Shown here in pieces: positions 45,967 to 60,345 of a stretch of 64,000 bases of DNA. The position numbers and the translations under genes were made by a program. The DNA is from Roseibium sediminicola (GTDB lineage: Bacteria; Pseudomonadota; Alphaproteobacteria; Rhizobiales; Stappiaceae): NCBI RefSeq assembly GCF_023156505.1, contig NZ_JALNMJ010000026.1, positions 1 to 64,000 on the forward strand. Direction: 5' to 3'. How positions within the stretch are numbered: position 1 is the first letter of the stretch; every line of letters starts with the position of its first letter. Under the pieces are notes generated by a model. It was not told the origin of the DNA. It worked only from the letters and a program-made list of their open reading frames with translations, and made no database searches.

Positions 45967-46096
45967 CGTCATTCCGGACAAGTGCAGCAATGCTGGGACC
46001 AGGGAGCTATGAGCCAAACACCCTTAGTCCCCGTCGTATCGACATGTGAGGGGCTCTCCGATCCCGGGTCTTCGCTCTGCTTCGCCCGGGATGACG
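45967..46096. repeat. Dispersed palindromic element
   Basis: The ends CGTCATTCCGG and CCGGGATGACG are inverted copies with one mismatch. The right half carries CCCGGGTCTTCGCTCTGC, as in the copy at 51422-51524. It lies in the 302-base gap between the lipoprotein and VOC genes, in which nothing else is visible. Confidence 0.65.
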
Positions 46097-46226
46097 AAGT
46101 CAGAGTTAGCCCGCATACCAAAGGCGTGACCGGGACCCCGGCCACGCCCTTGTCTTGCCGTCCCCGCGGCGGATCACAGCAGTGGGAGACCTCCCCCGCC
46201 CCGGGGTCCGGAAAGATCCTTGATCG

Positions 46227-46655
46227 TCAGGCCGGCAGAGCTTCCGGGGCGAACTGTTTCAGAAACTCTTCGCTCGGCGGGATCGGCTTGATGACGTCAA
46301 TCATCACCCCGTTCGGGTCTCGCGTGATGAAATGGCGCTGGCCGAAGGCCTCGTCGCGCAGCTCCTGCAGGATCGGCAGGCCGCTGGTCTTGGCCGCGCC
46401 ATAGACCGCGTCGACATCCTCGACCTCGAAATTGAGCAGCAGGCCGCCCGCCCCCTTGCCCCGGCCGGCTTCCGGAATGGTCTCGTGCGACTGGTCCAGC
46501 ACCGCAAGATTGACCTTGTCATCTTCTTCCGATTGCAGATGCACATACCAGTCCGCCTCGAAGACCGCCTTGAAGCGGAAGTTCTCCCGGTAGAACCGTA
46601 CCGTTGCGGCAACATCCGCGGTCATGAGAACCGGATAATATTGGGTACATTTCAT
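46227..46655 (-). CDS. VOC (glyoxalase-fold) family protein
   Basis: This 142-residue paired beta-alpha-beta-beta-beta protein starts [21 protein letters not shown], has [20 protein letters not shown] and ends [18 protein letters not shown] with a typical C-terminal Asp-Pro-Asn-Gly turn. VOC proteins bind divalent metal and act as lyases, dioxygenases or antibiotic-binding proteins; specificity cannot be assigned. AGGAG lies upstream of ATG 46655. It is divergent from a TetR regulator with two operators between them, so its expression is probably derepressed by a small molecule. Confidence 0.8.
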
Positions 46656-46716
46656 CGCTTTTCTCCTGAAGGGCCCGTGCCGGAGCGCGGCGGGGCTTTG
46701 CAAATCCACAAAAAAG

Positions 46717-46733
46717 ACATACAGTCTGTATGT
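46717..46733. promoter_or_regulatory. TetR operator O1 (perfect palindrome)
   Basis: ACATACAGTCTGTATGT is a perfect 8+1+8 palindrome. On the minus strand it lies just after a TTGAAA hexamer, so it would cover the promoter of the VOC gene. Confidence 0.7.
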
Positions 46734-46746
46734 AATTTTTCAACTA

Positions 46747-46763
46747 ACATACAGGCTGCATGT
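46747..46763. promoter_or_regulatory. TetR operator O2, abutting the regulator start codon
   Basis: ACATACAGGCTGCATGT is the same palindrome with one substitution. It ends exactly at the base before ATG 46764, and its centre is 30 bases (about three helical turns) from that of O1. This suggests cooperative autorepression. Confidence 0.68.
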
Positions 46764-47372
46764 ATGCAAGAGAAAAACGACCGGGAGCCCGGAAGCCGCC
46801 GCACCCAGGCCGAGCGCCGCGCGGAAACCCGCAAGGCGCTCCTGGACGCGGCGCGCGCGCTGATCGTGGACAAGGGCTACGCGGAAACGGCAACGCCGGA
46901 GATCGTCAAGGCGGCCAATGTCACCAGGGGCGCGCTCTATCACCATTTTGCCGACAAGGCGGATCTGATGCGTGCACTGGTGCTTCAGGAATCGGAAGCC
47001 ATCGCCGCCGACATCAACGCGGAGACCAACACCGGTCAGACACCGCTCGATGCTTTCATGGCCGGGGCGCAGGCCTATTTCACCGCCATGTCCGTGCCCG
47101 GCCGCGCAAAGATCATGCTGCTGGAAGGCCCGACGGTGCTTGGTCTTGCAGAGATGGCCGAGATCGACCGCCAGACCGGCGGCGCCACGCTCCTGGAAGG
47201 CCTGCGCCACGCCGCCAATCACGGCGCCCTGAAGGATATCCCCCTGGAACCCCTCGCCGACCTGCTCTCCTCCGCCTTCGACCGGGCTGCGCTGGCGATT
47301 GCCAATGGCGAGGACCGGGCGGCCTATGAGAGGGCAACCCGCAAGCTGCTGGCGGGGATTTTGACGGAGTGA
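46764..47372 (+). CDS. TetR-family transcriptional repressor
   Basis: This is a 202-residue TetR protein. The N-terminal HTH reads RKALLDAARALIVDKGYAET, then ATPEIVKAANVTRGALYHHF and ADKADLMRAL, a standard TetR signature. The ligand-binding domain is helical with KIMLLEGPTVLGLAEMAEID, resembling TetR_C_33/QacR-like members. ATG 46764 directly follows operator O2, so the transcript may be short-leadered. It should repress itself and the divergent VOC gene through O1 and O2; the inducer is unknown. Confidence 0.85.
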   Translation: MQEKNDREPGSRRTQAERRAETRKALLDAARALIVDKGYAETATPEIVKAANVTRGALYHHFADKADLMRALVLQESEAIAADINAETNTGQTPLDAFMAGAQAYFTAMSVPGRAKIMLLEGPTVLGLAEMAEIDRQTGGATLLEGLRHAANHGALKDIPLEPLADLLSSAFDRAALAIANGEDRAAYERATRKLLAGILTE

Positions 47373-47467
47373 GGATGGATGCCGTTTGTGCGCCCTCCCC
47401 CTTCGAGGCGGCGAGAACCGCAAATTGACACTTGTCGTTAGGCTTGAGCAAGCGCGTTTCCTCCGGT

Positions 47468-47612
47468 TGTCATCCCGGCCAAGCGCAGCGCGAGCCGGGA
47501 CCCACTCTCGGTCCCGCTTGTCAAAGCGTGCGCTTTGTTGTCAGCGGGGGCCATACCCATCGCTCTGCAAACGAGTAGGCCCCGGGTCTCCCGTTGGTCG
47601 CCCGGGGTGACA
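47468..47612. repeat. Dispersed palindromic element
   Basis: The ends TGTCATCCCGG and CCGGGGTGACA are inverted copies with one mismatch, and the internal GCCCCGGGTCTCCCGTTGG resembles other copies. It lies in the 519-base gap between the TetR and second VOC genes, which holds no gene I can support. Confidence 0.65.
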
Positions 47613-47645
47613 CCGGTACTTGAGGCAAAGCTTTGCCCCTCCGTC

Positions 47646-47749
47646 GTCATCTCCGCGAAAGCGGAGACCCAGGACTCCATGAGACGGACGGCTGGAACCG
47701 CAAGCACACGGTGCCTGGGCCTCGGGTCTCCCTAAGGTCGCCCTGAATG
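47646..47749. repeat. Degenerate dispersed palindromic element
   Basis: It starts GTCATCTCCGCGAAAGCGGAG with ACCCAGGACTCC as in other copies; the right side, CTCGGGTCTCCCTAAGGTCG, followed by CCCTGAATGA, is diverged. It sits in tandem right after the preceding element. Confidence 0.5.
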
Positions 47750-47891
47750 AAAAAAGGCATAGCTGGCGCGCCCACTCCAGACGGAATTTCCTGCCCTCGA
47801 AGGCAAAAACCCGCTCCCTGTCGCGATCCTTCAAGACAGGCAATACCCCGTCCGCTAGAAGACCGGCAGACCAAGCCTCAAGGAGCCTCAA

Positions 47892-48287
47892 GTGATTTTC
47901 CGCTATTCGATTCTCTATGTCGACGACGTCGCCGCCGCGCTCGATTTCTACGAGCGCGCCCTCGGCCTGACGCGCCTGTTCCTGCATGAAAGCGGCGACT
48001 ATGGCGAGCTGGCGACCGGCGAGACCAAGCTGGCCTTTTCCTCCAGGGCGCTGATGAAACAGCTCGGCAAGACACCCGGAACGCCCGACCCGAAAACCCC
48101 GGTTTTCGAGCTCGCCTTCGAAACCGACGATGTCCCGGCCGCGCTGAAAAAAGCCGTCGAGGCCGGTGCGACGCTGGTCCAGGACGCCCGCGAGGAACCT
48201 TGGGGCCAGACCACCTCCTATGTCAGCGATCCGTTCGGTTATCTGGTGGAAATCTGTTCGCCGGTCCAGTTGCCGAGCGCGGGCTGA
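47892..48287 (+). CDS. VOC (glyoxalase-fold) family protein
   Basis: The 131-residue product reads MIFRYSILYVDDVAAALDFY, then ALGLTRLFLHESGDYGEL, and ends SYVSDPFGYLVEICSPV with metal-site-type His/Glu positions (Glu in LVEIC). The start is GTG 47892 with AAGGAG six bases upstream. The reading frame overlaps the end of the convergent AraC gene by 49 bases. The substrate is unknown; sequence similarity to the other VOC protein in the window is low. Confidence 0.8.
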   Translation: MIFRYSILYVDDVAAALDFYERALGLTRLFLHESGDYGELATGETKLAFSSRALMKQLGKTPGTPDPKTPVFELAFETDDVPAALKKAVEAGATLVQDAREEPWGQTTSYVSDPFGYLVEICSPVQLPSAG

Positions 48288-48913
48288 CACAGAAGCTCAA
48301 GGATATGGGGCGCCCGGCGCAGCTGCGCCGGCGTGCCGCCGAACCAGCTCCGGAAATCCCGCGTCATGTGCGCCTGATCGCTGAAGCCGCAAAGATCCGC
48401 GATTTCCGGTAAGGCGAGCCCGGAGGCCAACAGCCCGGCCGCCCGCCGAGCCCGCGCCAGCAGCCGCCAATAGTCCGGCGCCGGCAACCCGAACGCCTTC
48501 AGCTGCCGCTGCAGCGTACGTTTCGACACGCCGAGATCCGCCGCTACGCTCTCGACACTTGCCCCTGGTGCCACCAGCGCCAGCAGGATCTCATCCGCCG
48601 CGTCCCCTGCCGCATCTGCCGACAACGCATTGCCCAGCACCTCCTCCGCCCGGCCGCAATCCCGCTCAAGCTCCGCCAGGACCTCATCGCCAACCACCGC
48701 CCCCGGCCGCAGCCGATACCCGGTGATTTCCGTGCCTGCAGACAACTCCGCCACCCGCGGCCGCAAATCCAGTACGGTCAGCACGATTTTTTCACGGGTG
48801 CCCGGTTCACGGACGATCAGAACGTCACGGCAGCCGTCGGGGAAGACGGGGGCACGCTCAGTGGTGGTGGTGGTGTGGTGGTGCCAGGGTTGGAAGGGGA
48901 TGGTGCGGGACAT
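48239..48913 (-). CDS. AraC-type HTH regulator (short N-terminal domain)
   Basis: The 224-residue product starts with a His/Thr-rich segment (WHHHTTTTTERAP), then a small sensor-like domain with FPDGCRDVLIV and ELSAGTEITGYRLRPGA. A C-terminal AraC HTH follows with SVESVAADLGVSKRTLQRQL and LPEIADLCGFSDQAHMTRDF. The N-terminal type, with PDGC-D, is common in DUF6597-like AraC regulators. It converges on the VOC gene with a 49-base overlap. It is the first gene beyond qhpE, but it reads in the same direction and there is no evidence that it belongs to the qhp system. Confidence 0.75.
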   Translation of the reverse strand: MSRTIPFQPWHHHTTTTTERAPVFPDGCRDVLIVREPGTREKIVLTVLDLRPRVAELSAGTEITGYRLRPGAVVGDEVLAELERDCGRAEEVLGNALSADAAGDAADEILLALVAPGASVESVAADLGVSKRTLQRQLKAFGLPAPDYWRLLARARRAAGLLASGLALPEIADLCGFSDQAHMTRDFRSWFGGTPAQLRRAPHILELLCQPALGNWTGEQISTR

Positions 48914-48981
48914 AAAGCAGGTCTAGCAGCAGGACTGCATTAGACAAAACATGGTTTTCAATGCTTGCCGTTTTTCCTATC

Positions 48982-49620
48982 TTATCCTACCACCTCCCCA
49001 CGCCGCTCCCTTCCCCGATACCTGACGGCCCCCTCCAGGCACCGCGCGCCCCGTCCCGTCTCCACCTGGCACGCTGCCAGCAGCCCGGCTGCATGCGCAG
49101 CCGCCGGGCTGGCGCCGCGAATCTCGGAGAACCCGACCGCTTCCGGACAGGCCCCGAACACCGCCTGGGGCAGGTCCAGCCGCGAGAGCTCTTGTGGCCC
49201 GCAGCGGGCGTCGCCCTGGACGGAGAGGACGCCGTAAAGACCTGCGGGATAGACCAGCCCGCCGCGGGCCGGGGCCGAGGCGATGAGTATGCTGCCGGCC
49301 CGCTGCAGGCGTGCGACCGCGAGGCCGAGCTCCACCGAGGAGCGGGCCATGCCGAAGGCGCAGAGGAGGATGTCGGGCGGGTCCTTGCAAAACCAGTCCA
49401 GCGCGGCGCAAACCTGAATGTGAGCGGCCGCCAGCCGGCCCGGAAAAACCACCGCGTTGACGAGTTTGATGTCGGGTGCATGGGACTGGATGGTCTTCGC
49501 CATGGCAGCGGCATGCATGCCGGCATGGGGCGTGCTGTCGCTCTCGCAGAACCAGGCCTGATGCTCGAGGCCCGGCCAGTCCTTCGGCAGGGCGCCGTCG
49601 ATGAGGCCGGTGCGGATCAT
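48982..49620 (-). CDS. qhpE: Subtilisin-like protease QhpE (gamma-subunit leader peptidase)
   Basis: This 212-residue minimal S8-fold protein has a triad that can be read as Asp8 (TGLIDGAL), His32 (STPHAGMHAAAMA) and Ser171 (IRGASPAAAHAAGLLAA, the GTSMAAPHVAG-like segment). The region where subtilases have the oxyanion Asn (AAGN) reads ASAPARGGLVYPAG, so that residue appears absent. In QHNDH biogenesis QhpE removes the leader of the cross-linked gamma subunit in the cytoplasm or at the membrane before or during export. ATG 49620 overlaps the qhpF stop (ATGA). It is the last gene of the cluster. Confidence 0.82.
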   Translation of the reverse strand: MIRTGLIDGALPKDWPGLEHQAWFCESDSTPHAGMHAAAMAKTIQSHAPDIKLVNAVVFPGRLAAAHIQVCAALDWFCKDPPDILLCAFGMARSSVELGLAVARLQRAGSILIASAPARGGLVYPAGLYGVLSVQGDARCGPQELSRLDLPQAVFGACPEAVGFSEIRGASPAAAHAAGLLAACQVETGRGARCLEGAVRYRGRERRGEVVG

Positions 49621-51371
49621 GAAGCCCCTCCCCTTATCGAGGCGAAACCGCCGAGATCGATGTGCCGGTCGAAAGCGCCATAGCGGTCGGCCTCGCCATG
49701 GGTGACGACAATCCTCGTGCGGTCCCCAAAAATGCGGTCGATCGCGGCCAGGATCCGTGAAACCCTTTCCCCGTCGACTTCCGACAGGCTTTCGTCCAGC
49801 ACCAGCACCTTGAAGGGCTGCAACAGCGCCCTTGCAAGGCAGAGCCGCTGGCGCTCGCCGCCGGAAAGCTCCAACCCGCCCTCGCCGAGCGGCGTTGCCA
49901 ATCCGTCCCGGACGAAGCGCTCTTCCAGTTCCAAGAGCCGCAGAACCTCCAGCATGTCGCTGTCGGTGGCGCTGGCGCAGCCGAGCCGGAGATTGTCGGA
50001 GAGCGTTCCGGAAAAGACATGGCCCTTCTGCGGCACCAGCGCAACGGCGCCGCGCAAGTCCTTCAGCGCCAGCTTTCTGAGATCGATCCCGTCGAGCAGG
50101 ATCGTACCCTGCCTCGGGTCGTCATGGCGCTGCAGCAGCGACAGGAGCGAGGATTTGCCGATGCCGGAGGGCCCGGACAAGCGCAGCTTGCTGCCCGCCG
50201 GGAGGGTCAGCGAAAGGTCTTCAAAGAGCGGCGGCCCGTCCGCAGGCGCATAGGCAAGGTGGCTCAGCGCCAGCTCCCCACCCCCAGCATCCAACGCAAT
50301 CGGCGTCGCCGGGTCGCGCACTTCGGGTTCGGCGCTCATCACCTGGTCAAGCCGGTCGAGCGCGGCCTTCATGCGCGCCTGACCGTGCCAGAGCGAGATC
50401 AGCGACTGAATCGGCCCAATGAGAAAACCGAGATAGGCGATAAAGGCAATCAGAGACCCGAGCGGCATCGTGCCGTCGATGACGGCGAGCCCGCCGATCA
50501 GAAAGACGGCTCCGCGCAGGATCGCGGTTAGCACCATCGGCACGGCGCGGGTCACCTCGGACCACATCTGCGCCTTCATCAAGGCACCTACGAGAGTGTT
50601 CTGGCGGGTTTCGATCCGGTCGGCAGCCGCCTCCGAGGCGTTGAGGGCGCGAAGCGCCGACAGGCCGGTGATGGTCTCGGCAAGGCTGGAGGCGAGATGT
50701 CCCCGCGCCTGACGCACGTCCCGTGCCTTCTGGTGCGTCACCGGCCGGGCCCGGGCAAAGAACAGCAGCTCGACCGGCGCCAGCGCCAGGGCGAGAAGAG
50801 CCAGCTTCGGCGCCAGCACAAACAACATCACCAACCCGCCGCACAGCCGGAGCAGACTGCCGGCACCGGACACCAGGACGGAAAAGGTGAATTGCTGGAC
50901 CTCGCCTGCATCGCCATCGAGCCGGCTCATCAGCTCGCCTGTTGTCTGGCGCGCCTGCCAGCGGGGCGACTGCTCAAGGATCTTTTGAACCGCCGCGCGG
51001 CGGAGATCCGCCAGAAGCCTTGCGGAAAACCTCAAATGCAGCAGCGAATTCACCGCGCCCAGCGCCAGCGCTGCCAGACCGACGCCGAACAGTGCTGCGG
51101 CGAACATTACCAGCGCCTGCTTGTCGCCCGCCATCAGCCCCTGGTCGATCACCAGCTTTGTAAGATAGGGCGGGATCAGCGCCGCCCCGGCGGTCACCAG
51201 CGACAAGAGGAGCAGCGCCGCCAGCGGCCAGCGGTAGGGCACGACCAGCGGCAGCAGCCAGGCGGCTTCGCGGCGGCCGAACAGGCGAGAGAACAGCGCG
51301 CGCAGGAGGGACTGCCGCGGCGTTTCAACAGCGTCTGGTGTCGCGCCGGTCAGGGGCACGGACTGTCTCAT
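49617..51371 (-). CDS. qhpF: ABC exporter QhpF for the modified gamma subunit
   Basis: The 584-residue half-transporter has an N-terminal six-helix domain (about residues 35-330) and a nucleotide-binding domain. It shows Walker A SGPSGIGKSSLLSLL, Q-loop region VALVPQKGHVFSGTL, signature ELSGGERQRLCLARAL, Walker B VLVLDESLSEVDG with the catalytic Glu, and H-loop IVVTHGEADR. By synteny it is QhpF, which takes the thioether-crosslinked gamma subunit to the periplasm. ATG 51371 starts the conserved part; a longer frame reads into a dispersed repeat and is not coding. The 273 bases between qhpB and qhpF contain that repeat and a hairpin. Confidence 0.85.
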   Translation of the reverse strand: MRQSVPLTGATPDAVETPRQSLLRALFSRLFGRREAAWLLPLVVPYRWPLAALLLLSLVTAGAALIPPYLTKLVIDQGLMAGDKQALVMFAAALFGVGLAALALGAVNSLLHLRFSARLLADLRRAAVQKILEQSPRWQARQTTGELMSRLDGDAGEVQQFTFSVLVSGAGSLLRLCGGLVMLFVLAPKLALLALALAPVELLFFARARPVTHQKARDVRQARGHLASSLAETITGLSALRALNASEAAADRIETRQNTLVGALMKAQMWSEVTRAVPMVLTAILRGAVFLIGGLAVIDGTMPLGSLIAFIAYLGFLIGPIQSLISLWHGQARMKAALDRLDQVMSAEPEVRDPATPIALDAGGGELALSHLAYAPADGPPLFEDLSLTLPAGSKLRLSGPSGIGKSSLLSLLQRHDDPRQGTILLDGIDLRKLALKDLRGAVALVPQKGHVFSGTLSDNLRLGCASATDSDMLEVLRLLELEERFVRDGLATPLGEGGLELSGGERQRLCLARALLQPFKVLVLDESLSEVDGERVSRILAAIDRIFGDRTRIVVTHGEADRYGAFDRHIDLGGFASIRGGAS

Positions 51372-51421
51372 CGTTTCGCCTTCATCTATGCCGCTTTTCC
51401 AATTTCGGCTCCTCCCCCAGC

Positions 51422-51524
51422 TGTCACCCCGCGAAAGCGGGGACCCAGGACGCTGTGAGGCCAGCGGCAAGACCCGTGAGCTCACGGAGTCCTGGGTCTT
51501 CGCGTTGCTCCGCCCGGGATGACA
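51422..51524. repeat. Dispersed palindromic element inside the qhp cluster
   Basis: The ends TGTCACCCCG and CGGGATGACA are near-perfect inverted copies. GACCCAGGACGC and GAGTCCTGGGTCTTCG inside are also arranged as an inverted repeat. It separates qhpB from qhpF. Confidence 0.7.
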
Positions 51525-51575
51525 ACGGAGGGTTTGCCCTCTCATTCCGTCCCACTTCCAATGGCAGAATGAGCT

Positions 51576-51612
51576 AGCCGGGCCGGAAAAAGCTGCGCTT
51601 GCCGGCCCGGCT
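51576..51612 (-). other. Strong hairpin downstream of qhpB
   Basis: AGCCGGGCCGG pairs perfectly with CCGGCCCGGCT over a 15-base loop, beginning about 33 bases after the qhpB stop. There is no T-tract after the stem, so it is more likely an mRNA-stabilising or attenuating structure than a full terminator. Confidence 0.55.
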
Positions 51613-51644
51613 GCGGTCGCCCGGGAGGACGGGCTTGATTTCCC

Positions 51645-52736
51645 CTAACTCCCCGTGCTGATCACATGCATCGTGCCGGCGGCCATGTCGCCGCCCGACG
51701 GCAGCAGGATTTCGCCGATGCGCTCAAGGCTTTCAGCGTCGTAGATGCCGATGTCGTCATTGGTGCCGCCGACATAGATCTCCTTTCCGTCCGAGGAAAT
51801 GTTGATGCAGTAATAGGTGTGCGGCAGGTCGACACGCTTGATCAGCTCCTTCTTGGTAACGTCATGCTTGGAAAGCTGGGTATAGACGCCGTAGAGCTTG
51901 GAGGTGTCGTTCGGATCGCGTACCGCGGAGAACATGATCACCTCCAGGCTGGCGAAGTCCTGGATCGTGCTCTCGCCCGTTGTAAGGTCAATCGACTGGT
52001 AGCCCCAGACGAAATCGGCGATTTCGCTCATCGTCTCGTCGGTGAACTTGGCCGCCGAATAAAGCAGCAGGAACTCGTCCGCCTGGGTACCGATCGGCCA
52101 GAAGGCAAGCACATCCGGCGGCGAATAGGTCGGCCGGTCCCAATTGGCATTGGCGATCTTGACCGTGCGTTCGCCGGTCTTCGGATCGAAAGCATAGACA
52201 TCATGCCCGGCCGCATAAACCTCACCGTTCTTGCCGGTTGCCATGACGGTGATCCGGCGCGGGCTCGGGAAGGTTCGGGCGGGTTGCGCGTCAAGCCCGG
52301 CCGACGTGTCATAGACCGCGAATTCCGGCTCCATCACCTCGTAGCGGTCGGCCAGAAGCCGGACCGGGTTCCGCACGGTGTAAAGCTCCTTGCCATCCTT
52401 GGAGACCGCCAGCGAGGCAATCGTCTTGCGGCGGATGTCGCCTTCCGACTGATGCGCGGAAAACACCGTCTCGCAGGTGGCAAGATCGATGCCGAAGACA
52501 TCTTCCCAGCGGTTGCCGAGGATATAGGCGATGGAATTGTCCGGCGACATGACAATGACGCCGGGCATCAGGTTGAAGTCGAGCTTGCAGTCCGTCTCGA
52601 CGGAGCGCGCCTCGGCGTCGATCACATACAGCCGGTCTGGCTTGGCGACGGTGACGATCAGGTCCCTGGCCATCGCCGGAAGGCCGGTGAGCCCGAGACA
52701 GAACGCGGCCGTTGCCGCTGCTAGAAGCGTTCGCAT
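51645..52736 (-). CDS. qhpB: Quinohemoprotein amine dehydrogenase beta subunit
   Basis: The 363-residue periplasmic subunit has a Sec signal peptide (MRTLLAAATAAFCLGLTGL, ending PAMA before RDLIV). The mature part is a seven-bladed beta-propeller built of repeats such as AKPDRLYVIDAEARSVETDC, SPDNSIAYILGNRWEDVFGI, and SSDGKEIYVGGTNDDIGIYD. In QHNDH this propeller, together with gamma, forms the substrate cavity. ATG 52736 has AAGGAG six bases upstream; it follows qhpC by 31 bases. Confidence 0.9.
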   Translation of the reverse strand: MRTLLAAATAAFCLGLTGLPAMARDLIVTVAKPDRLYVIDAEARSVETDCKLDFNLMPGVIVMSPDNSIAYILGNRWEDVFGIDLATCETVFSAHQSEGDIRRKTIASLAVSKDGKELYTVRNPVRLLADRYEVMEPEFAVYDTSAGLDAQPARTFPSPRRITVMATGKNGEVYAAGHDVYAFDPKTGERTVKIANANWDRPTYSPPDVLAFWPIGTQADEFLLLYSAAKFTDETMSEIADFVWGYQSIDLTTGESTIQDFASLEVIMFSAVRDPNDTSKLYGVYTQLSKHDVTKKELIKRVDLPHTYYCINISSDGKEIYVGGTNDDIGIYDAESLERIGEILLPSGGDMAAGTMHVISTGS

Positions 52737-52767
52737 GGGTTTCTCCTTGAGTTCGGTCGGCAGGCCA

Positions 52768-53100
52768 TCAGGTTTCGCTGTCGGACGGGAACACCGTGCC
52801 GAGCGAACGCCAGTCCTTGCCAGCATTGTCGGCGCCATCATTCCAGTCCTTGTAGGAATTCATTGTGTCGGGCACCTGGGCCGGCCACCAGCACGGGTCG
52901 GAACAGCCGTAAAGGTCGGCTTCCATCGGCTGGCAGAGGGCTGCGACGCCGCCGAACGGGTCAACCTCCCAGCCCGGATCCAGCGTCGAGGCGCAGCCGG
53001 CCACCACCGTCTGCATCGCCCGGACCTCGTCCATCTTGTCGGTCTCGACGGCCGCGACCACCCGGTCGGCCTTCTGGTTCAGGGGTATCAAGTGTCTCAT
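52768..53100 (-). CDS. qhpC: QHNDH gamma subunit precursor (carries the CTQ cofactor)
   Basis: The 110-residue precursor consists of a leader (about 28-29 residues, [20 protein letters not shown] onwards) and a compact Cys-rich core. Relative to published mature numbering (offset 29), the residues Cys7-Glu16, Cys27-Asp33 and Cys41-Asp49 of the three Cys-acid thioethers are present, as is Cys37-Trp43 of cysteine tryptophylquinone. In precursor numbering they are C36/E45, C56/D62, C70/D78 and C66/W72. The catalytic base Asp12 is D41. QhpD makes the thioethers, QhpG hydroxylates the Trp, QhpE removes the leader and QhpF exports it. ATG 53100 overlaps the qhpD stop as ATGA; an extended upstream frame is antisense-like and ignored. 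Confidence 0.95.
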
Positions 53101-54533
53101 TTGCCGTATGCCCTCCGAGGCATGATGTGATCGGAAAAGAAGGCGGGTGCGCCGGCGATCAATTCGCCATAAACGCCGATGCCGAAATCGACCCAGTCGC
53201 GCATCAGGTCGCAATAGTGGTAGGTCGGCTTCATCGGGTCGGAGAAATGGGCGTAGCTCTCGTGGTAGCAGCCGCCGGCGCAGATGTTGCGGATGCGGCA
53301 GGTCGAGCAGCCCTTGTCGGTGCGGTCGGCCCTATCCTCGATGAACCGCGCCAGCTTCTGCTTCTCGATACCGCTGTCCACCGAACCGTAGGTCTCCATG
53401 TCCGAGCCGGTGAAGCGGTGGCAGAGGTTCAGCCCTCCCTCGTGATCGACCGCCAGCATGCCCAGCCCCGCGCCGCAGGGCAGCGCCTTGGAGCGGCCTT
53501 CGTAAAGATCGCTCATCAGCTGGTGCATGTTGGAAAAACCTATATTGCGGCCGAATAGCGCCTCGTCCCGGTAGTGCCGGCCGAGCCGTTTCATCTCCTG
53601 AAACACGGTCACCAGCTCGTCGCCGGTCAGGTTGAACGGGGCGATGGGCCCGGACGTCACCGGCGAAAAGCCGACTTCATGAAAGCCGATCTCGTTTTTC
53701 AGGTGATCCCAGATGTCATAGACCGCCGTGACGCCATGGGTCAGCGTCACCCGCCCGCCGACCGGGCGGGAGGTGTAGCGTTCCAGCAGCATCTTCGTCT
53801 TGCGGGCAACGACGTCATAGGTGCCCTTGCCGCCGACGGTCTTGCGGTTCCTGTCATGCAGCGCCTTGGGCCCGTCCATGGAAACCGTCAGGCCGAAGCG
53901 GTGCGCGTTCAGCCAGTCGACGTTTTCCTCGGTGAGCAGCGTTGCGTTGGTGGTCAGCGAGAAGTCGACCTTCTTGCCGAGAGACCCGAACCGGTCCTCC
54001 GAATAGGCGACCACCTCGCGGATCAGGCCGAGGTTGCTCAAGGGCTCGCCACCGAAAAAAACAACATTGTAGCTGTCCCGGTCCGGGCTTTCGGCAAGCA
54101 ACAGCTCAATGGAACGTTTTGCCGTCTCGAAAGCCATGCGCCGGCTGTTTGTCGGCGTGTCCAGATCCTCCTTGTAACAATAGGTGCAGGAGAGATTGCA
54201 GCCCGTGTTGACGTTGAGAACGATCGTCGTCAGCGGGAAGTTCTGGATATGCACCGGCGGGCGCTCCGCCCTTGGCGGGCCGCCGTCGGTGATGATGTCG
54301 AGGTCGAGCAATGCCTTGAGGCGTTCCGTGACGAGGGCCGGGTCGGCCCGCCCCTCGAACCGGTCCCTGACATCCCCTTCCGAGACCTTTGAGCGGTCCT
54401 GGAAGAGATCGATCACGTCGCTGTCGAGCCGGTCGATCTCGAACAGAGAGGTCGTAGGCACGTGGAACAGGAGCTGCCGTCCGTCAACCTCGACACGGTG
54501 CGCATTCTGCGGCTGAAAAAAGAGATAACCCAT
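53097..54533 (-). CDS. qhpD: Radical SAM/SPASM peptide-modifying enzyme QhpD
   Basis: The 478-residue enzyme has a RiPP-recognition-like N-terminus (about 1-90) and the radical SAM motif [11 protein letters not shown] (Cys112, Cys116, Cys119). The SAM-binding FFGGEPLSN follows, and SPASM auxiliary Fe-S cysteines lie in [27 protein letters not shown] and YHYCDLM. QhpD introduces the three Cys-to-Asp/Glu thioether bonds into the gamma subunit. It shares an ATGA overlap with qhpC downstream. ATG 54533 has AAGGA eight bases upstream. Confidence 0.93.
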
Positions 54534-54549
54534 TATGCTTGTTCCTTCT

Positions 54550-56115
54550 TCAGCGGATCGGAGGATCGTTCCAGCGCTGGACCGTAATGATCAGCTGTCC
54601 CTCACCGGTGACATCGCCGCTTGTGGCCAGAACCTTCAGATTGCCCGCGTTGTTGGTGGAAAACGGCCGCTCCGGATTGGGGCCGGCGACACCCGGTGTG
54701 AAGATGCCGAGTTCGGTGTCCATGACACCGGCATGTTCGACATCCTTCAGGGCTTCCGCTTCCTCGTTGAAGGCCTCGACCGACCACTTGGCGGGCACCA
54801 CGCCGATGCGGATATCGTCTTCCGTGCCGGCTTGCCCGTCCGGACCGTTCCAGTAGCCGACCGCGTCGAAGCGGGCCGGCACCTTGCCGGCGGACCCGCC
54901 GCCGCCGCCAACACGGGCGACCGTATAGGCGGGCTCGACCTTGAGGCTGTCGATGTGGCTGTAGACGGCGAGCACGTTGTCAGCGGACACCCCATCGGAC
55001 GCGACGCTGACCGCGCCATCCGTCGCGGCAACCGGTGTAACGTCAATGGCCGCGCCGTAGGCATTCGCCGTGCCGCCCGTGGCCTCCAGAGCGCCGGACA
55101 GGGCAACGTTTTCCAGACCGGTGCCGACGACCTGAACCGTAGCATTCGAACCGGCCGGAAGGGTTGAAGGCACCACGCCGGCGATCGCCGGCTCACCACC
55201 GGCCTTCACTGCATTGAAGGCCCCGCCGAGACTGTCTTCCGCATGCAGGAACTGACGCCCAGAGAGGCTGCCACCATCCTCGGAGATCGCCAGAATCTGG
55301 CGGTATTTGTCACCGCCGATGTCCAGATTGGCGCGCCATTCATAGCCCGTATAGACATTCAACTTGCCGGAGACGGGCAGTTCCTCGCCTAACGCGGTCA
55401 CCAGTGTTCCGGAAACGGTCAACGGCTGGGCGTCTCCGGTGACTTCCAGGCTGCCATAGGCCTCGCCCTTATCCGGCAGCGTGGTGGTGAAGACCCAGCT
55501 GCCGGTGGCCTCCGGTTTCTGTGCTGCCAGCCAGGCGGTCCAGTCTTCCGTTTCCAGCGGATAACGTTCCGCCAGAAGCGGCACGACTTCTTCGCGGGCA
55601 AGCTTCAGCCATTCCCTGTCGCGGCCGAGCGCCTGATATTCCAGTGTCTGGAACTGGCCGACATGAAAATCGATGTGAAGATCCCACTCCTCCGCCGTGC
55701 GACGTTGAAGTTCGAAGCGCGCGGCGGAGTGGCAGCGCGAGCACATTTCACCGAGCGGCGCGTCCACCTCCTCGACCACGGCCGGTTCCCGCTCCAGAAT
55801 GTAGCGGTGACTAGCCGCTTCGCTCGGCGCGAGGCCCTGCGTATCGGCCAGGTAATGCACCAGCTGGCTCTGCACCTCCGGCGTGATCTCCAGGCCATGG
55901 AAAAGCCGCATGCGCACGATGGTCATCAGCCAGCCTTCCGGCGTCTTGCGCTGGCCGCTGATCCGGCTGAGGGCACCATTTGCATCGGCCGCATGGCAGC
56001 CGCCGCAATTTTCTTCCATGAGCGCCGGGCCGTCCTGCGCCCCGGCGGGCAAAGGCATCAGGAGCAGAAGACCGGCCAGGCCGGCGAGATGCCCCTTTCG
56101 CAATCTTGGTGTCAT
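54550..56115 (-). CDS. qhpA: QHNDH alpha subunit (dihaem cytochrome c)
   Basis: The 521-residue periplasmic subunit has a signal peptide ending LLLLMPLPAGA before QDGP. Two haem c sites follow: ENCGGCHAAD (Cys37/Cys40/His41) and CSRCHSAA (Cys125/Cys128/His129). Further domains are beta-rich and Ig-like (VVPSTLPAGSNATVQVVGTG). In QHNDH the haems carry electrons from the quinone of gamma to an external cytochrome or azurin. ATG 56115 overlaps the qhpG stop (ATGA); a longer frame from 56193 would read the end of qhpG. Confidence 0.92.
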   Translation of the reverse strand: MTPRLRKGHLAGLAGLLLLMPLPAGAQDGPALMEENCGGCHAADANGALSRISGQRKTPEGWLMTIVRMRLFHGLEITPEVQSQLVHYLADTQGLAPSEAASHRYILEREPAVVEEVDAPLGEMCSRCHSAARFELQRRTAEEWDLHIDFHVGQFQTLEYQALGRDREWLKLAREEVVPLLAERYPLETEDWTAWLAAQKPEATGSWVFTTTLPDKGEAYGSLEVTGDAQPLTVSGTLVTALGEELPVSGKLNVYTGYEWRANLDIGGDKYRQILAISEDGGSLSGRQFLHAEDSLGGAFNAVKAGGEPAIAGVVPSTLPAGSNATVQVVGTGLENVALSGALEATGGTANAYGAAIDVTPVAATDGAVSVASDGVSADNVLAVYSHIDSLKVEPAYTVARVGGGGGSAGKVPARFDAVGYWNGPDGQAGTEDDIRIGVVPAKWSVEAFNEEAEALKDVEHAGVMDTELGIFTPGVAGPNPERPFSTNNAGNLKVLATSGDVTGEGQLIITVQRWNDPPIR

Positions 56116-57452
56116 GCTGTTTCCCTCGTTCTGGTCGGTTGGTGTGCGTTGCGGCTCGTCGAGCCGTTGAAAAGACCCCGGCTTGCCAGCCACTGAAACG
56201 CGGCCTGGAATGCGGGAGACGGTGTGTCGGGAATGGGCTTTGCTCTGGTGCCCGAGGCGTCGATCAGATCGCCGACCGGCAAACCGGCGACAAAGGCGAC
56301 CCCGTCCGGGTCCAGCGGCGTGATCAGGACATCACGTTCGACGAGACGGTTGTCTTCGACCACCACCCGCGTCTCCATGCGAACCGAATTCGGCACCGCA
56401 TGAGAAGGCTGGTCGTCAGGCCATGCGGCGCGGCGGCGCCAGAACGGTTCGGCAGCGAGCCTTCGTTCGAGGCGGTAAAAATCTCGGCCGACCCGTGCCT
56501 GGCGCCAGAAGGTTTCGACCACTCTGGCCCGATAGAAGCGGGCCGCGAGATCGACACCCGGCTTCGGATTGTCCAGGACGGTCAGTGCCATCGGCACAGC
56601 GGCCAGGGCCGAGGACAGCGCCCAGAAGAGGCCATGCCCGGAAAGCGGATCGATCGCCACCGCCGCATCGCCGGCCGGGATCACCGGCAGCGTCAGCTCC
56701 GGCGCTGACAACACCAGCCCGGCGGCGCGTGCAAGCAGCTTGTTTTGAACGTTGAGCCCGCCCATGTCTTCCGTCAGGCAGGGCTGGGTCAAAAACCGGT
56801 TCACGCGCTCCTGAAGAGCTGCCTCTCCCGCTCCGCCAAGATCGTCCGCATCGACGGAAATCTGCAGCCAGCGGCCAAAGCCGGGCGCTTCGGCCAGCCA
56901 CAGCCAGCCCTCGGGCGTCGCCGCGACATGAGTTCCCGGCGTGCCGGAGACACTGTCAAGAAGGCCGCTGATGGACAGCGTCTGCGGCCCTTTCAGCCTT
57001 TGTGAAGACGGCGCCTGACGGCCGCGCGCGTCAATCATCAGCCGCGCCGAGACTGCATCACCGCTTGAGAGTTTCAGGACAACGCCCTGTTCCGGATGCG
57101 TTTTTTCAATCCGGCCGATCCGCCCTTCGATCAGTTCCGCGCCGGCATCGACCGCGGCCTGGCGCAGGGCGGCGTCGAAGGCTGGACGTCGCACCAGGCG
57201 TTCGCCATTGGCGCTGCGTTTGAGCCCTGCCCAATCGACGGAACGGGGACAGGGCGCGCTTGCAGTCGCCAGAACGGCCTCAAGCCCACGTGCTTTCAGG
57301 AGCTGCGCCACGCGGGTGCTCAGGCCTTCCAGGCGCGGGCGCCCTGCCGCCGGATCGACGATCAGCACCGTGCAGCCGGCACGCACCAGCTCACGCGCTG
57401 CGAAGGCACCGGCGGGCCCGCCCCCGGCGACGACACAATCGTAATAGGTCAC
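56112..57452 (-). CDS. qhpG: FAD-dependent monooxygenase QhpG
   Basis: This is a 446-residue flavoprotein of the p-hydroxybenzoate hydroxylase/tryptophan halogenase fold. The N-terminal FAD site reads YDCVVAGGGPAGAFAARELV, and the second FAD/ribityl motif is PVIPAGDAAVAIDPLSGHG. QhpG was shown in Paracoccus to dihydroxylate the gamma-subunit Trp during CTQ formation. GTG 57452 is chosen (GAGGGAA eight bases upstream); TTG at 57455 is equally in frame. It is the first gene of the minus-strand qhp operon; divergent from qhpR. Confidence 0.88.
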   Translation of the reverse strand: MTYYDCVVAGGGPAGAFAARELVRAGCTVLIVDPAAGRPRLEGLSTRVAQLLKARGLEAVLATASAPCPRSVDWAGLKRSANGERLVRRPAFDAALRQAAVDAGAELIEGRIGRIEKTHPEQGVVLKLSSGDAVSARLMIDARGRQAPSSQRLKGPQTLSISGLLDSVSGTPGTHVAATPEGWLWLAEAPGFGRWLQISVDADDLGGAGEAALQERVNRFLTQPCLTEDMGGLNVQNKLLARAAGLVLSAPELTLPVIPAGDAAVAIDPLSGHGLFWALSSALAAVPMALTVLDNPKPGVDLAARFYRARVVETFWRQARVGRDFYRLERRLAAEPFWRRRAAWPDDQPSHAVPNSVRMETRVVVEDNRLVERDVLITPLDPDGVAFVAGLPVGDLIDASGTRAKPIPDTPSPAFQAAFQWLASRGLFNGSTSRNAHQPTRTRETA

Positions 57453-57694
57453 CAATACTGTTCCCTCGTCCGGCCGCCCAAGTGTTCAAGGTGCGGAACC
57501 GGATCTCTCTGTGCCCGCCATTAGGGGAGCAGCGGCCGGTGCTTTCCCGACAATTTCGGCCAATCTTTTCCGAAACGGCAAAAACGCGCCGACATCGTTT
57601 GCAACGCCGCGGAATGTTTGATGTAGTTGTGACTTCAGCTTGGCGGTTTCTGCGTCAGGCTGAATTGGAGAGGCTTCGAACCGAAGCGAGGACC

Positions 57695-58723
57695 ATGCCG
57701 AAAAGCGCGACGATCATCTCGGGCGCCCTGAACGGTCTACAGGCAATGCTGACGCAGCAGGGTCTGGAGCCCGAAGCGCTCGGCCGCCAGAGCGGCCTGC
57801 CAGTGACGGTCTGGAAAAATGCCCGTCACGAGATCCCGCTTTACGCTTTTGTCCAGATTTATGAAAACGGCGCCGACCTGCTCGGACAGCCAGGTATCGG
57901 CTGGCAGTCCGGCCCGCTCCTGAACCTTGCAGATCTCGGCGAACTGGGCGACGCGCTTCTGACCGCCTCCTCGGTCGGCTCGGCGCTCAAGACGTTCGAG
58001 CGCTTCATCAAGTTCATCCAGAGCGAGACCGACCTGCAGCTGACCATCGAGGACGGCGTCGCCACCCTTACCTACCGCATTCTCAATCCGGATATCTGGC
58101 CGCGCCGCCAGGATGCCGAATTCACCCTGTCCGTGCTGGTCGAATTGATCCGCCGCGGCGCCGGCAGCTCATGGACGCCCGACCTGGTCTGTTTTGAGCA
58201 CAGCGCGGCCCGGTCCCAGGCAAGTTCCATGGCCGCTGCCGGCAGTCTCTGCCTGTACGACAGCGAGACCAATGCCTTGAGCTTTCCCGAAAGCGTTCTC
58301 GCCCTGCCAATGCCAAGGGACGACAGCGGCCGTCACCGCAGCGTGCTTGCCCATCTCAGCCGGGAACTCGCCGAAAAAGCCCGGGCCCGCTCCCTGACCG
58401 CGCGCACCCGCACGGCGATTTATGAAACCCTCGGCACCGGCCAGGCGGATCAGGAAACCATCGCCCGTCAGCTCGGTCTCTCCCGCCGCTCGCTGCACAG
58501 GCATCTGGGCGAAGAAGGCACGCGCTTTTCCGTCCTGTTGGACGAGTGCCGCTATCGGGTTGCCCGTCACGCCTTGATCGACACGCCGCATTCGCTTGCC
58601 CAGATCGCCTGCGAACTCGACTATTCCGACCAGACCGCCTTTGAGCGCGCCTTCAAGCGCCGCACCGGCGTGACGCCAAAACAGTTCCGTCAGGCGCTGT
58701 TCCGCTGTCCCCTGCGCGATTGA
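57695..58723 (+). CDS. qhpR: AraC-family regulator QhpR
   Basis: The 342-residue protein has an N-terminal arabinose-binding-like domain (GLQAMLTQQGLEPEALGRQS, LYAFVQIYENGADLLGQPGI) and a C-terminal AraC HTH (ETIARQLGLSRRSLHRHLGE and LAQIACELDYSDQTAFERAF). By its divergent position it is the QhpR activator that induces the cluster in response to amine. ATG 57695 has GAGG just upstream; further in-frame starts to 57614 are possible. The 240-base divergent gap contains TTTCGG/CCGAAA (57554-57575, 10-base gap), a candidate but weak site. Confidence 0.85.
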   Translation: MPKSATIISGALNGLQAMLTQQGLEPEALGRQSGLPVTVWKNARHEIPLYAFVQIYENGADLLGQPGIGWQSGPLLNLADLGELGDALLTASSVGSALKTFERFIKFIQSETDLQLTIEDGVATLTYRILNPDIWPRRQDAEFTLSVLVELIRRGAGSSWTPDLVCFEHSAARSQASSMAAAGSLCLYDSETNALSFPESVLALPMPRDDSGRHRSVLAHLSRELAEKARARSLTARTRTAIYETLGTGQADQETIARQLGLSRRSLHRHLGEEGTRFSVLLDECRYRVARHALIDTPHSLAQIACELDYSDQTAFERAFKRRTGVTPKQFRQALFRCPLRD

Positions 58724-58726
58724 AGG

Positions 58727-59770
58727 TTATGCGGGGCCTGCGCCCGCCAGTTCCGGATGCGCATAGGCCTCCGGATAGGCCATCGGCCGCAGCGGCCCGA
58801 GTGGCACAACCCTGTTCCAAGACCGGCCGAAATAGCCCTGACGGCAATGGACCAGCGAATTGCTTGTGGCAACGCCCGGCAGCGCATGCACGCGGCACAG
58901 CCAGCGCCACAGATGCGGATAGTCGAGGATCTTCGCCCCGTTCAGCTTCATGCGCAGGTAATAGACCGGGTCATGCCGGTAAAGCGTCGGAAAGAGCCTG
59001 AGATCCGCCTCGGTGAAGGCCTCGCCGGTCAGGAACGGACGGCCGTCGGAGAGCCTATCCTCCAACGTTCCCAGCATGTCGAAATAGGCCTTGAATGCCG
59101 CCGCATAAACCGCCTGGTCGGATGAGAATCCGGCCTTGTAGGCGCCGTTGTTGATCGCCTGGTAGATGGCCTCGTTGAGCCCGTCGATCTCGGCCTGCAG
59201 CGACTTGTCCGGTGGATAGAGGTCCGCCCGCTCACCCGCTGGGATCGTGCTGCCAAGCGCCTCGGCATGGGCGTTCAGCATGCGCAGGATTTCCGCGCTT
59301 TCGTTGCTGACGATGCGCCGCTGCTTCTTGTCGTAGAGCACCGGGACGGATTTTTCATCGGACCCTTCGGCGCGGTAGATATCGCGCACCAGCCGGTGGC
59401 CCTTCCCCGTGCCGGTCTCGGCTGTGCATTCCGGCAGCGGCGCGCCGGTGAGGCTCGCCGTTTTCTCCGGAGCGAACTGCCACAGGTTCGGACCTGCCGG
59501 ATCGTCTTCCTCTGTCCGCCCGGGAAAGGCGATGTCCATCGTGACGGTGTCCTGAAGCCCCAGGACATTCCGTGCCAGGGTCACCCGATGGCACCACGGG
59601 CAATTGAGCGCCACGAACAGATGATAGCGCCCAGGCTCCGGCGGAAAATCCGGATCGCCTATGGCGGTCCTGAAGCCGCTGACGCCGCGCACGAATTCTC
59701 CCCGTGCGCGGCGCCCGGAGGCGTCAGTCTGGTTTTCCTGAACGGATGCGTCCGGTGTCTTCGAGGCCAT
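58727..59770 (-). CDS. Glutathionyl-hydroquinone reductase (Omega-class GST, YqjG/ECM4 type)
   Basis: The 347-residue product is of the xi-class GST family, which removes glutathione from glutathionyl-hydroquinones. The catalytic motif is ALNCPWCHRV with Cys57. The typical N-terminal SGFRTAIGDPDFPPEPGRYH, KSVPVLYDKKQRRIVSNESA (cis-Pro region) and C-terminal GLNEAIYQAINNGAYKAGFS and GEAFTEADLRLFPTLYRHDP are all present. The start ATG 59770 follows a hemerythrin-domain gene end by 8 bases on the same strand, so the two may form one operon, linking quinone detoxification and oxygen/nitric-oxide stress. Confidence 0.9.
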   Translation of the reverse strand: MASKTPDASVQENQTDASGRRARGEFVRGVSGFRTAIGDPDFPPEPGRYHLFVALNCPWCHRVTLARNVLGLQDTVTMDIAFPGRTEEDDPAGPNLWQFAPEKTASLTGAPLPECTAETGTGKGHRLVRDIYRAEGSDEKSVPVLYDKKQRRIVSNESAEILRMLNAHAEALGSTIPAGERADLYPPDKSLQAEIDGLNEAIYQAINNGAYKAGFSSDQAVYAAAFKAYFDMLGTLEDRLSDGRPFLTGEAFTEADLRLFPTLYRHDPVYYLRMKLNGAKILDYPHLWRWLCRVHALPGVATSNSLVHCRQGYFGRSWNRVVPLGPLRPMAYPEAYAHPELAGAGPA

Positions 59771-59778
59771 TGGTTGTC

Positions 59779-60345
59779 CTATCCGCGCAGGCGATGATGC
59801 AGAATGATCGGCACCGCCAGCTCTTCCTCGTCGCTTAGGTGCCGGTCGAGCAGCTGTTCGATCGCCTCCGTGACCGGATGCAGCTTTCCGGCTTCCTCAT
59901 AGGCCTGCACCTCATCCAGCTGAACCAGCTTGATGGCACGATTGGCGATGCCCGAAAAGTCATGCAGCACGGTGTCGAGCGCCGCATGGTCCTGTTCCAG
60001 GATCTCCAGCCCGCTGTCAAAGCGCGGATCGGCCGCCGAAAGCTCCGGAAAATAACTCCGGTCCTCCCAGGTGTGATGGCCATGGAGATTGCCCACCAGA
60101 ATGTTGCCGAAACGGGAGAGCCGCCCGGCGAAGTCGTCGGGCACCAGGTTCCTGTCGAGATAGGCTTCCGTGTCTTCGCGAAGCAGCCCGGCCAGCCTGC
60201 GGAACGATCGATGCGCGTTCAGCCAGCCTCTGGTCTTTTCCTGAAAGCCCGGATGGCTGTCCCAGCTGTCACGCGGATATTCTGCCAGAAGAAGACGCAT
60301 CTCTGCAGGCATGGCATCGGTTCGAATGGTCAGATCGGCAGTCAT
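59779..60345 (-). CDS. Hemerythrin-domain protein
   Basis: The 188-residue protein is mainly helical with metal-ligand candidates HHTWEDRSYFPEL (His-His and Glu), LEQDHAALD (His) and LDRHLSDEEELAVP (His and Glu). These sit at the spacing of a hemerythrin-type four-helix bundle that binds a diiron centre and dioxygen or related ligands. AAGGAG lies seven bases before ATG 60345. It is 8 bases from the following glutathionyl-hydroquinone reductase, suggesting a stress-related pair. Confidence 0.82.
   Translation of the reverse strand: MTADLTIRTDAMPAEMRLLLAEYPRDSWDSHPGFQEKTRGWLNAHRSFRRLAGLLREDTEAYLDRNLVPDDFAGRLSRFGNILVGNLHGHHTWEDRSYFPELSAADPRFDSGLEILEQDHAALDTVLHDFSGIANRAIKLVQLDEVQAYEEAGKLHPVTEAIEQLLDRHLSDEEELAVPIILHHRLRG

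What the first reader, a model, noticed from the sequence alone, without database searches (positions are those of the whole stretch)
48982..58723. Complete quinohemoprotein amine dehydrogenase cluster with full cofactor-maturation line
Seven minus-strand genes (qhpG-A-D-C-B-F-E) plus divergent qhpR encode all three enzyme subunits, the thioether-forming radical SAM enzyme, the Trp-hydroxylating flavoprotein, the exporter, the leader protease and the regulator. The junctions G/A, D/C and F/E are ATGA overlaps. The system is known from Paracoccus and Pseudomonas, but a complete, apparently intact set here predicts growth on primary amines.
Basis: partly seen in the sequence, partly recalled or inferred. 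Interest (0 to 1): 0.75.

Follow-up and report, generated by a model that had tools for sequence, protein, structure and literature searches.

The report
Ordinary complete amine dehydrogenase gene cluster
A bacterium of the marine Roseibium group carries an intact, correctly identified set of genes for a well-known enzyme that oxidises simple amines, together with the tools that build its unusual built-in cofactor; the same set is reported from more than a thousand species, so it is ordinary.

Summary
Observation and interpretation are both right. Window 48982-58723 holds seven open minus-strand genes, qhpG-A-D-C-B-F-E, and a divergent qhpR. Alpha, beta, gamma, QhpD, QhpG and QhpR exceed their curated NCBIfam cut-offs. 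QhpE falls short (150 against 165 bits), as do 8 of 10 relatives tested, but keeps the Asp/His/Ser triad. QhpF is assigned by position and ABC-exporter type. The CTQ and thioether residues of gamma and both CXXCH sites of alpha are present. The three ATGA overlaps are real. The genome is of the Roseibium group; 10 of 45 genomes of the genus, own included, carry QhpD. PMC7876137 puts the operon in more than 1300 species with variable order, so 'known from Paracoccus and Pseudomonas' undersells it. The window's order occurs in 33 of 80 related loci, 25 with divergent qhpR. Small additions: a 20-bp box between qhpR and qhpG shared by close relatives, plausibly the regulator's site; a shared TTG start of qhpG; structured qhpB-qhpF gaps; and a relative with unrelated genes at the same chromosomal spot. 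New member of a known kind; low interest.

The parts
48982..49620 (-). qhpE, subtilisin-like leader protease (triad D8, H36, S171)
   Evidence: NF049966 150.2 bits, below the 165 cut-off; triad columns 63/63, 63/63, 62/63; weak subtilisin alignment (E 0.043) places the same residues
49617..51371 (-). qhpF, ABC exporter (start inferred)
   Evidence: PF00664 and PF00005; place in the operon; 63 of 80 loci gave a relative for the alignment of 64
51372..51644 (-). qhpB-qhpF gap with a dispersed palindromic repeat and strong hairpins
   Evidence: 24 matches in the genome, itself included, most partial; inverted repeats; MFE z -4.5 against mononucleotide shuffles
51645..52736 (-). qhpB, beta subunit (start inferred)
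   Evidence: TIGR03907 407.1 bits; 1jmx_B 6.9e-88
52768..53100 (-). qhpC, gamma subunit precursor with a leader of about 29 residues and the CTQ residues
   Evidence: PF08992, NF037958; 1jmx_G 2.1e-40; cross-link columns 81/81
53097..54533 (-). qhpD, radical SAM/SPASM thioether-forming enzyme
   Evidence: TIGR03906 738.1 bits
54550..56115 (-). qhpA, alpha subunit, signal peptide (by eye), two CXXCH sites
   Evidence: TIGR03908 554.9 bits; 1jmx_A 1.5e-121; CGGCH and CSRCH in the translation
56112..57455 (-). qhpG, peptidyl-Trp dihydroxylase (FAD); TTG start
   Evidence: NF049967 445.7 bits; 7ctq_A 7.4e-59; start codons compared
57544..57563 (-). conserved box TTGGCCGAAATTGTCGGGAA between qhpR and qhpG; candidate QhpR site (inference)
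57695..58723 (+). qhpR, AraC-family regulator (start inferred)
   Evidence: NF049968 333.2 bits over its 250 cut-off

Best explanation
This is a complete, apparently functional qhp cluster. QhpR, responding to a primary amine, switches on the divergent operon. [quoted passage not shown] QhpG dihydroxylates the CTQ tryptophan; QhpE cuts the leader; QhpF exports the peptide; in the periplasm it joins the dihaem alpha and the beta subunit (each with a signal peptide) to give quinohemoprotein amine dehydrogenase, which oxidises primary amines to aldehydes and passes the electrons to a periplasmic carrier. Shown here: presence and integrity of the genes, their family identity and the key residues. 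Inferred from characterised homologues: every enzymatic step, the order of steps, regulation, and growth on amines.
For: Curated equivalog models over cut-off for six of eight proteins; solved homologues for alpha, beta, gamma and QhpG; cross-link and CTQ columns of gamma the same in 81 of 81 aligned sequences; same gene set and order in 33 of 80 related loci; roles of the homologues in PMC7876137 (abstract, introduction, first results sections and found passages read).
Against: QhpE is below its curated cut-off, though so are 8 of 10 relatives tested. QhpF has no dedicated model here. No electron acceptor or aldehyde dehydrogenase was seen among the 12 flanking frames scanned with Pfam; elsewhere the genome has 27 matched places for PF00171 and one for PF00127. 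The 80 loci were picked by similarity to QhpC, so the invariant gamma columns show that the window fits the set, not an independent test.
Confidence: 0.95

Rival explanations
1. The set is intact in frame but silent or partly decayed, for example because QhpE is no longer active or qhpF and qhpE are poorly expressed behind the repeat between qhpB and qhpF.
For: QhpE below its cut-off and less conserved than QhpD (52-76% against 87-94% in the near relatives); a repeat lies between qhpB and qhpF.
Against: Triad residues intact; 8 of 10 relatives' QhpE also score below the cut-off; the 10 near relatives folded all have a structured qhpB-qhpF gap of 96 to 634 bases; all frames open.
Confidence: 0.04
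2. A related cross-linked-peptide system with a target other than amine dehydrogenase.
For: QhpD also matches other SPASM peptide maturase models, at lower scores and below their cut-offs.
Against: Alpha, beta and gamma subunits are all present and over their equivalog cut-offs.
Confidence: 0.01

Closest known systems
qhp operon / quinohemoprotein amine dehydrogenase of Pseudomonas putida (1jmx, 1jmz; QhpG 7ctq)
   Same: All three subunits and QhpG match: E 1.5e-121, 6.9e-88, 2.1e-40, 7.4e-59.
   Different: Gene order: in the Pseudomonas loci fetched, qhpF-E-G lie upstream of qhpA-D-C-B where they are seen at all; here the order is G-A-D-C-B-F-E.
qhp operon of Paracoccus denitrificans (1jju, 1pby)
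   Same: Same gene set as described in PMC7876137; subunits match. That 1jju/1pby are the Paracoccus enzyme is recalled.
   Different: Its gene order was not compared here; the leader is about 29 residues here by alignment, 28 in the paper.
qhp clusters of Roseibium, Stappia sp. BW2, Breoghania, Leisingera and Ruegeria marina
   Different: Nothing of substance; spacing and flanking genes vary.

Membership tests
Quinohemoprotein amine dehydrogenase (qhp system) | Alpha, beta and gamma subunits together | tested here: met
   All three over equivalog cut-offs and matching solved chains
Quinohemoprotein amine dehydrogenase (qhp system) | CTQ residues (Cys37, Trp43) and three Cys-Asp/Glu thioether pairs in gamma | tested here: met
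   All eight columns the same in 81 of 81; Cys37/Trp43 and Asp33 read in PMC7876137, the other pairings recalled from the structures
Quinohemoprotein amine dehydrogenase (qhp system) | Two c-type haem motifs in alpha | tested here: met
   CGGCH and CSRCH in the translation; their Cys/His columns 77-78 of 79
Quinohemoprotein amine dehydrogenase (qhp system) | QhpD with radical SAM CX3CX2C motif | tested here: met
   TIGR03906 over cut-off; C112/C116/C119 in 79 of 81
Quinohemoprotein amine dehydrogenase (qhp system) | QhpG flavoprotein | tested here: met
   NF049967 over cut-off; 7ctq_A match
Quinohemoprotein amine dehydrogenase (qhp system) | AraC-type regulator QhpR | tested here: met
   NF049968 over cut-off
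Quinohemoprotein amine dehydrogenase (qhp system) | QhpE protease with catalytic triad | tested here: inconclusive
   Equivalog model below cut-off, 150.2 against 165; triad present
Quinohemoprotein amine dehydrogenase (qhp system) | QhpF exporter | tested here: inconclusive
   General ABC exporter match and operon position; no dedicated model seen
Quinohemoprotein amine dehydrogenase (qhp system) | Amine-induced periplasmic activity | not testable with these tools
   Needs cells

The most novel reading that the evidence does not exclude
In these bacteria (ten qhp-bearing genomes of the genus, and Breoghania) the qhp operon carries a fixed dosage programme: QhpR binds the conserved 20-bp box, qhpG starts from an inefficient UUG, and lineage-specific palindromes between qhpB and qhpF hold the level of the export and protease genes below that of the subunits.
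Probability: 0.2. Interest if true: 0.3.

Novelty: new member of a known kind. Interest (0 to 1): 0.12.

Why it matters
It gives a confident annotation (periplasmic amine oxidation in a Roseibium-group bacterium) and a candidate operator for the amine-responsive regulator, but changes no understanding of the system. The cluster is patchy in the genus (QhpD in 10 of 45 genomes).

Tried and rejected
QhpE below its cut-off raised the question of a decayed protease. Rejected as the likeliest reading: the triad is intact, and of ten relatives' QhpE scanned, 8 are below the cut-off (L098, L003, L006, L002, L004, L020, L010, L013) and 2 above (L007, L005). The L098 frame given there was cut by eye from a tblastn hit and may not be its full length. 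These ten are a chosen part of the loci held.

The downstream AraC-type gene (48239-48913) was considered as a second qhp regulator: it matches the QhpR model only over the last hundred positions, at 55.1 bits against a cut-off of 250, and is also kept by a relative that lacks qhp, so I take it for a neighbour.

Rfam over 46000-60000 gave no match. For the box: a search for QhpR/AraC/n-butylamine listed 20 of 29 papers, none of the 20 holding QhpR; Labrenzia/Roseibium/amine dehydrogenase listed 20 of 63, the only one with 'amine dehydrogenase' being about an engineered NADH enzyme. Subscription papers are mostly not held, so I do not claim that the box is unpublished.

The hairpin z-scores use mononucleotide shuffles in a genome with many such palindromes; gaps over 450 bases were folded over their first 450 only. 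They show structure, not selection. That call took a chosen 25 loci plus the window: L054 was skipped because that script's tblastn had not included it, and L013, L014 and L018 have gaps too short to fold. Outside the near relatives 11 of 14 were folded, z from 1.1 to -4.1 (the strongest, L008, is Pseudovibrio).

Full report
Observation. In order of transcription on the minus strand: qhpG (56112-57455), qhpA (54550-56115), qhpD (53097-54533), qhpC (52768-53100), qhpB (51645 to about 52736), qhpF (49617 to about 51371), qhpE (48982-49620); qhpR is divergent (about 57695-58723, plus strand). The overlaps G/A, D/C and F/E read ATGA. In ten other loci looked at there (nine of the genus and one of Breoghania), the stop of qhpG and the stop of qhpD sit in an ATGA in 10 of 10; the stop of qhpF does in 7 of 10, the other three reading GTGA (one) or TTGA (two).

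Identity. Pfam and NCBIfam name alpha, beta, gamma, QhpD, QhpG and QhpR over curated cut-offs (Pfam has no QhpR, QhpG or QhpD model by name; NCBIfam has). QhpE reaches 150.2 bits against 165; of ten relatives' QhpE scanned in the same way 8 are below and 2 above, so the shortfall is usual. QhpF has general ABC exporter matches only. Alpha, beta and gamma match 1jmx/1jmz and 1jju/1pby, and QhpG matches 7ctq, 'peptidyl tryptophan dihydroxylase'. QhpE gave only weak subtilisin matches (best E 0.043).

Key residues. The gamma precursor aligns so that its first Cys falls on position 7 of the solved chains, which puts the leader at about 29 residues. The columns of the three thioethers and of CTQ are the same in 81 of 81 aligned sequences (80 loci plus the window, loci picked by QhpC similarity). 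Cys37 and Trp43 as the CTQ pair, and Asp33, were read in PMC7876137; the other pairings are recalled from the structures. Alpha has CGGCH and CSRCH. QhpD keeps C112, C116 and C119 (79 of 81). QhpE keeps D8, H36 and S171 (63, 63 and 62 of 63), which the subtilisin alignment places on the subtilisin triad.

Host and spread. The nearest named QhpC sequences are from Roseibium aggregatum (94 and 93%), 'Rhodobacterales bacterium BW5' (92%), Breoghania (90%) and Stappia sp. BW2 (89%). Two genomes of the window's genus have contigs as long as published chromosomes: G003 as Labrenzia sp. PHM005 (6,167,349) and G017 as Roseibium sp. Sym1 (6,694,563) (abstracts seen in the listing, PMC6855096 and PMC10019159). 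QhpD is found in 10 of 45 genomes of the genus, own included; the gamma family in 10 of 61 relatives, own included: 9 of 37 of the genus and 1 of 24 others of the order. Of 397 confirmed relatives of QhpC in the genome collection the best 80 were kept. Among these 80, 76 show A-D-C-B in a row, 49 have all seven of G, A, D, C, B, F and E within the fetched DNA, 33 have exactly G-A-D-C-B-F-E on one strand, and 25 of these also have a divergent qhpR-like gene upstream. Many loci are cut by contig ends or the 10-kb flank, so completeness counts are lower bounds.

Known state. PMC7876137 (outline, abstract, introduction, first results sections and found passages read) describes the operon qhpABCDEFGR, its variable order, its presence in more than 1300 species, and the work of QhpD, QhpE, QhpF and QhpG. 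The window adds one member.

Extras. (1) Between qhpR and qhpG a 20-bp box (TTGGCCRAAAWTGTCGRGAA) is conserved. It was written from seven aligned sequences, which match by construction. Of nine stretches of the genus fetched later, five have the contig lengths of records already used; the four others (L098, L102, L103, L104) are independent, and 4 of 4 match exactly between qhpR and qhpG. In the window's genome there is one exact place and 12 with three mismatches, against 2 for the reversed control pattern. 91 of 106 loci held have no exact match; 17 of these 91 are short single-gene stretches that do not span the region (L001, L082-L097), and the rest include Leisingera and Pseudomonas clusters. 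A QhpR site is an inference. (2) An in-frame TTG stands at the presumed start of qhpG in 10 of 10 loci compared; 4 of 10, like the window, have a GTG one codon on. (3) The qhpB-qhpF gap is structured in the window (z -4.5) and in 10 of 10 near relatives folded (z -3.2 to -8.1), less regularly in the 11 others folded (1.1 to -4.1) (mononucleotide shuffles, chosen loci). In the window it holds a dispersed palindromic repeat with 24 matches in the genome, itself included, most of them partial (40 of 73 candidates scored). (4) In G017, which has no QhpD or gamma match, the flanking genes are kept (GST 87%, AraC-type gene 77%), but between them lie about 13.7 kb with MoxR, DUF58 and VWA genes (Bat-like) and sulfatase- and phosphodiesterase-type genes: a spot with exchanged gene blocks.

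Verdict. It is ordinary; interest 0.12.

Noticed in passing
window 57544-57563 (-): Conserved 20-bp box in the qhpR-qhpG intergenic region, one exact copy in the genome; possible QhpR operator.
   Followed up: partly
window 51410-51530: Dispersed palindromic repeat inside the operon between qhpB and qhpF; 24 matches in the genome, itself included, three more in this window (26411, 46053, 47653).
   Followed up: partly
window 57453-57455 (-): qhpG, first gene of the operon, seems to start with TTG; an in-frame TTG stands there in 10 of 10 relatives compared.
   Followed up: partly
L107 3104-16671 (G017): A relative without qhp carries MoxR/VWA genes and sulfatase-type genes at the same chromosomal spot.
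   Followed up: partly
window 48239-48913 (-): AraC-type regulator next to qhpE, found in 6 of 45 genus genomes at E <= 1e-40, one of them without qhp.
   Followed up: partly
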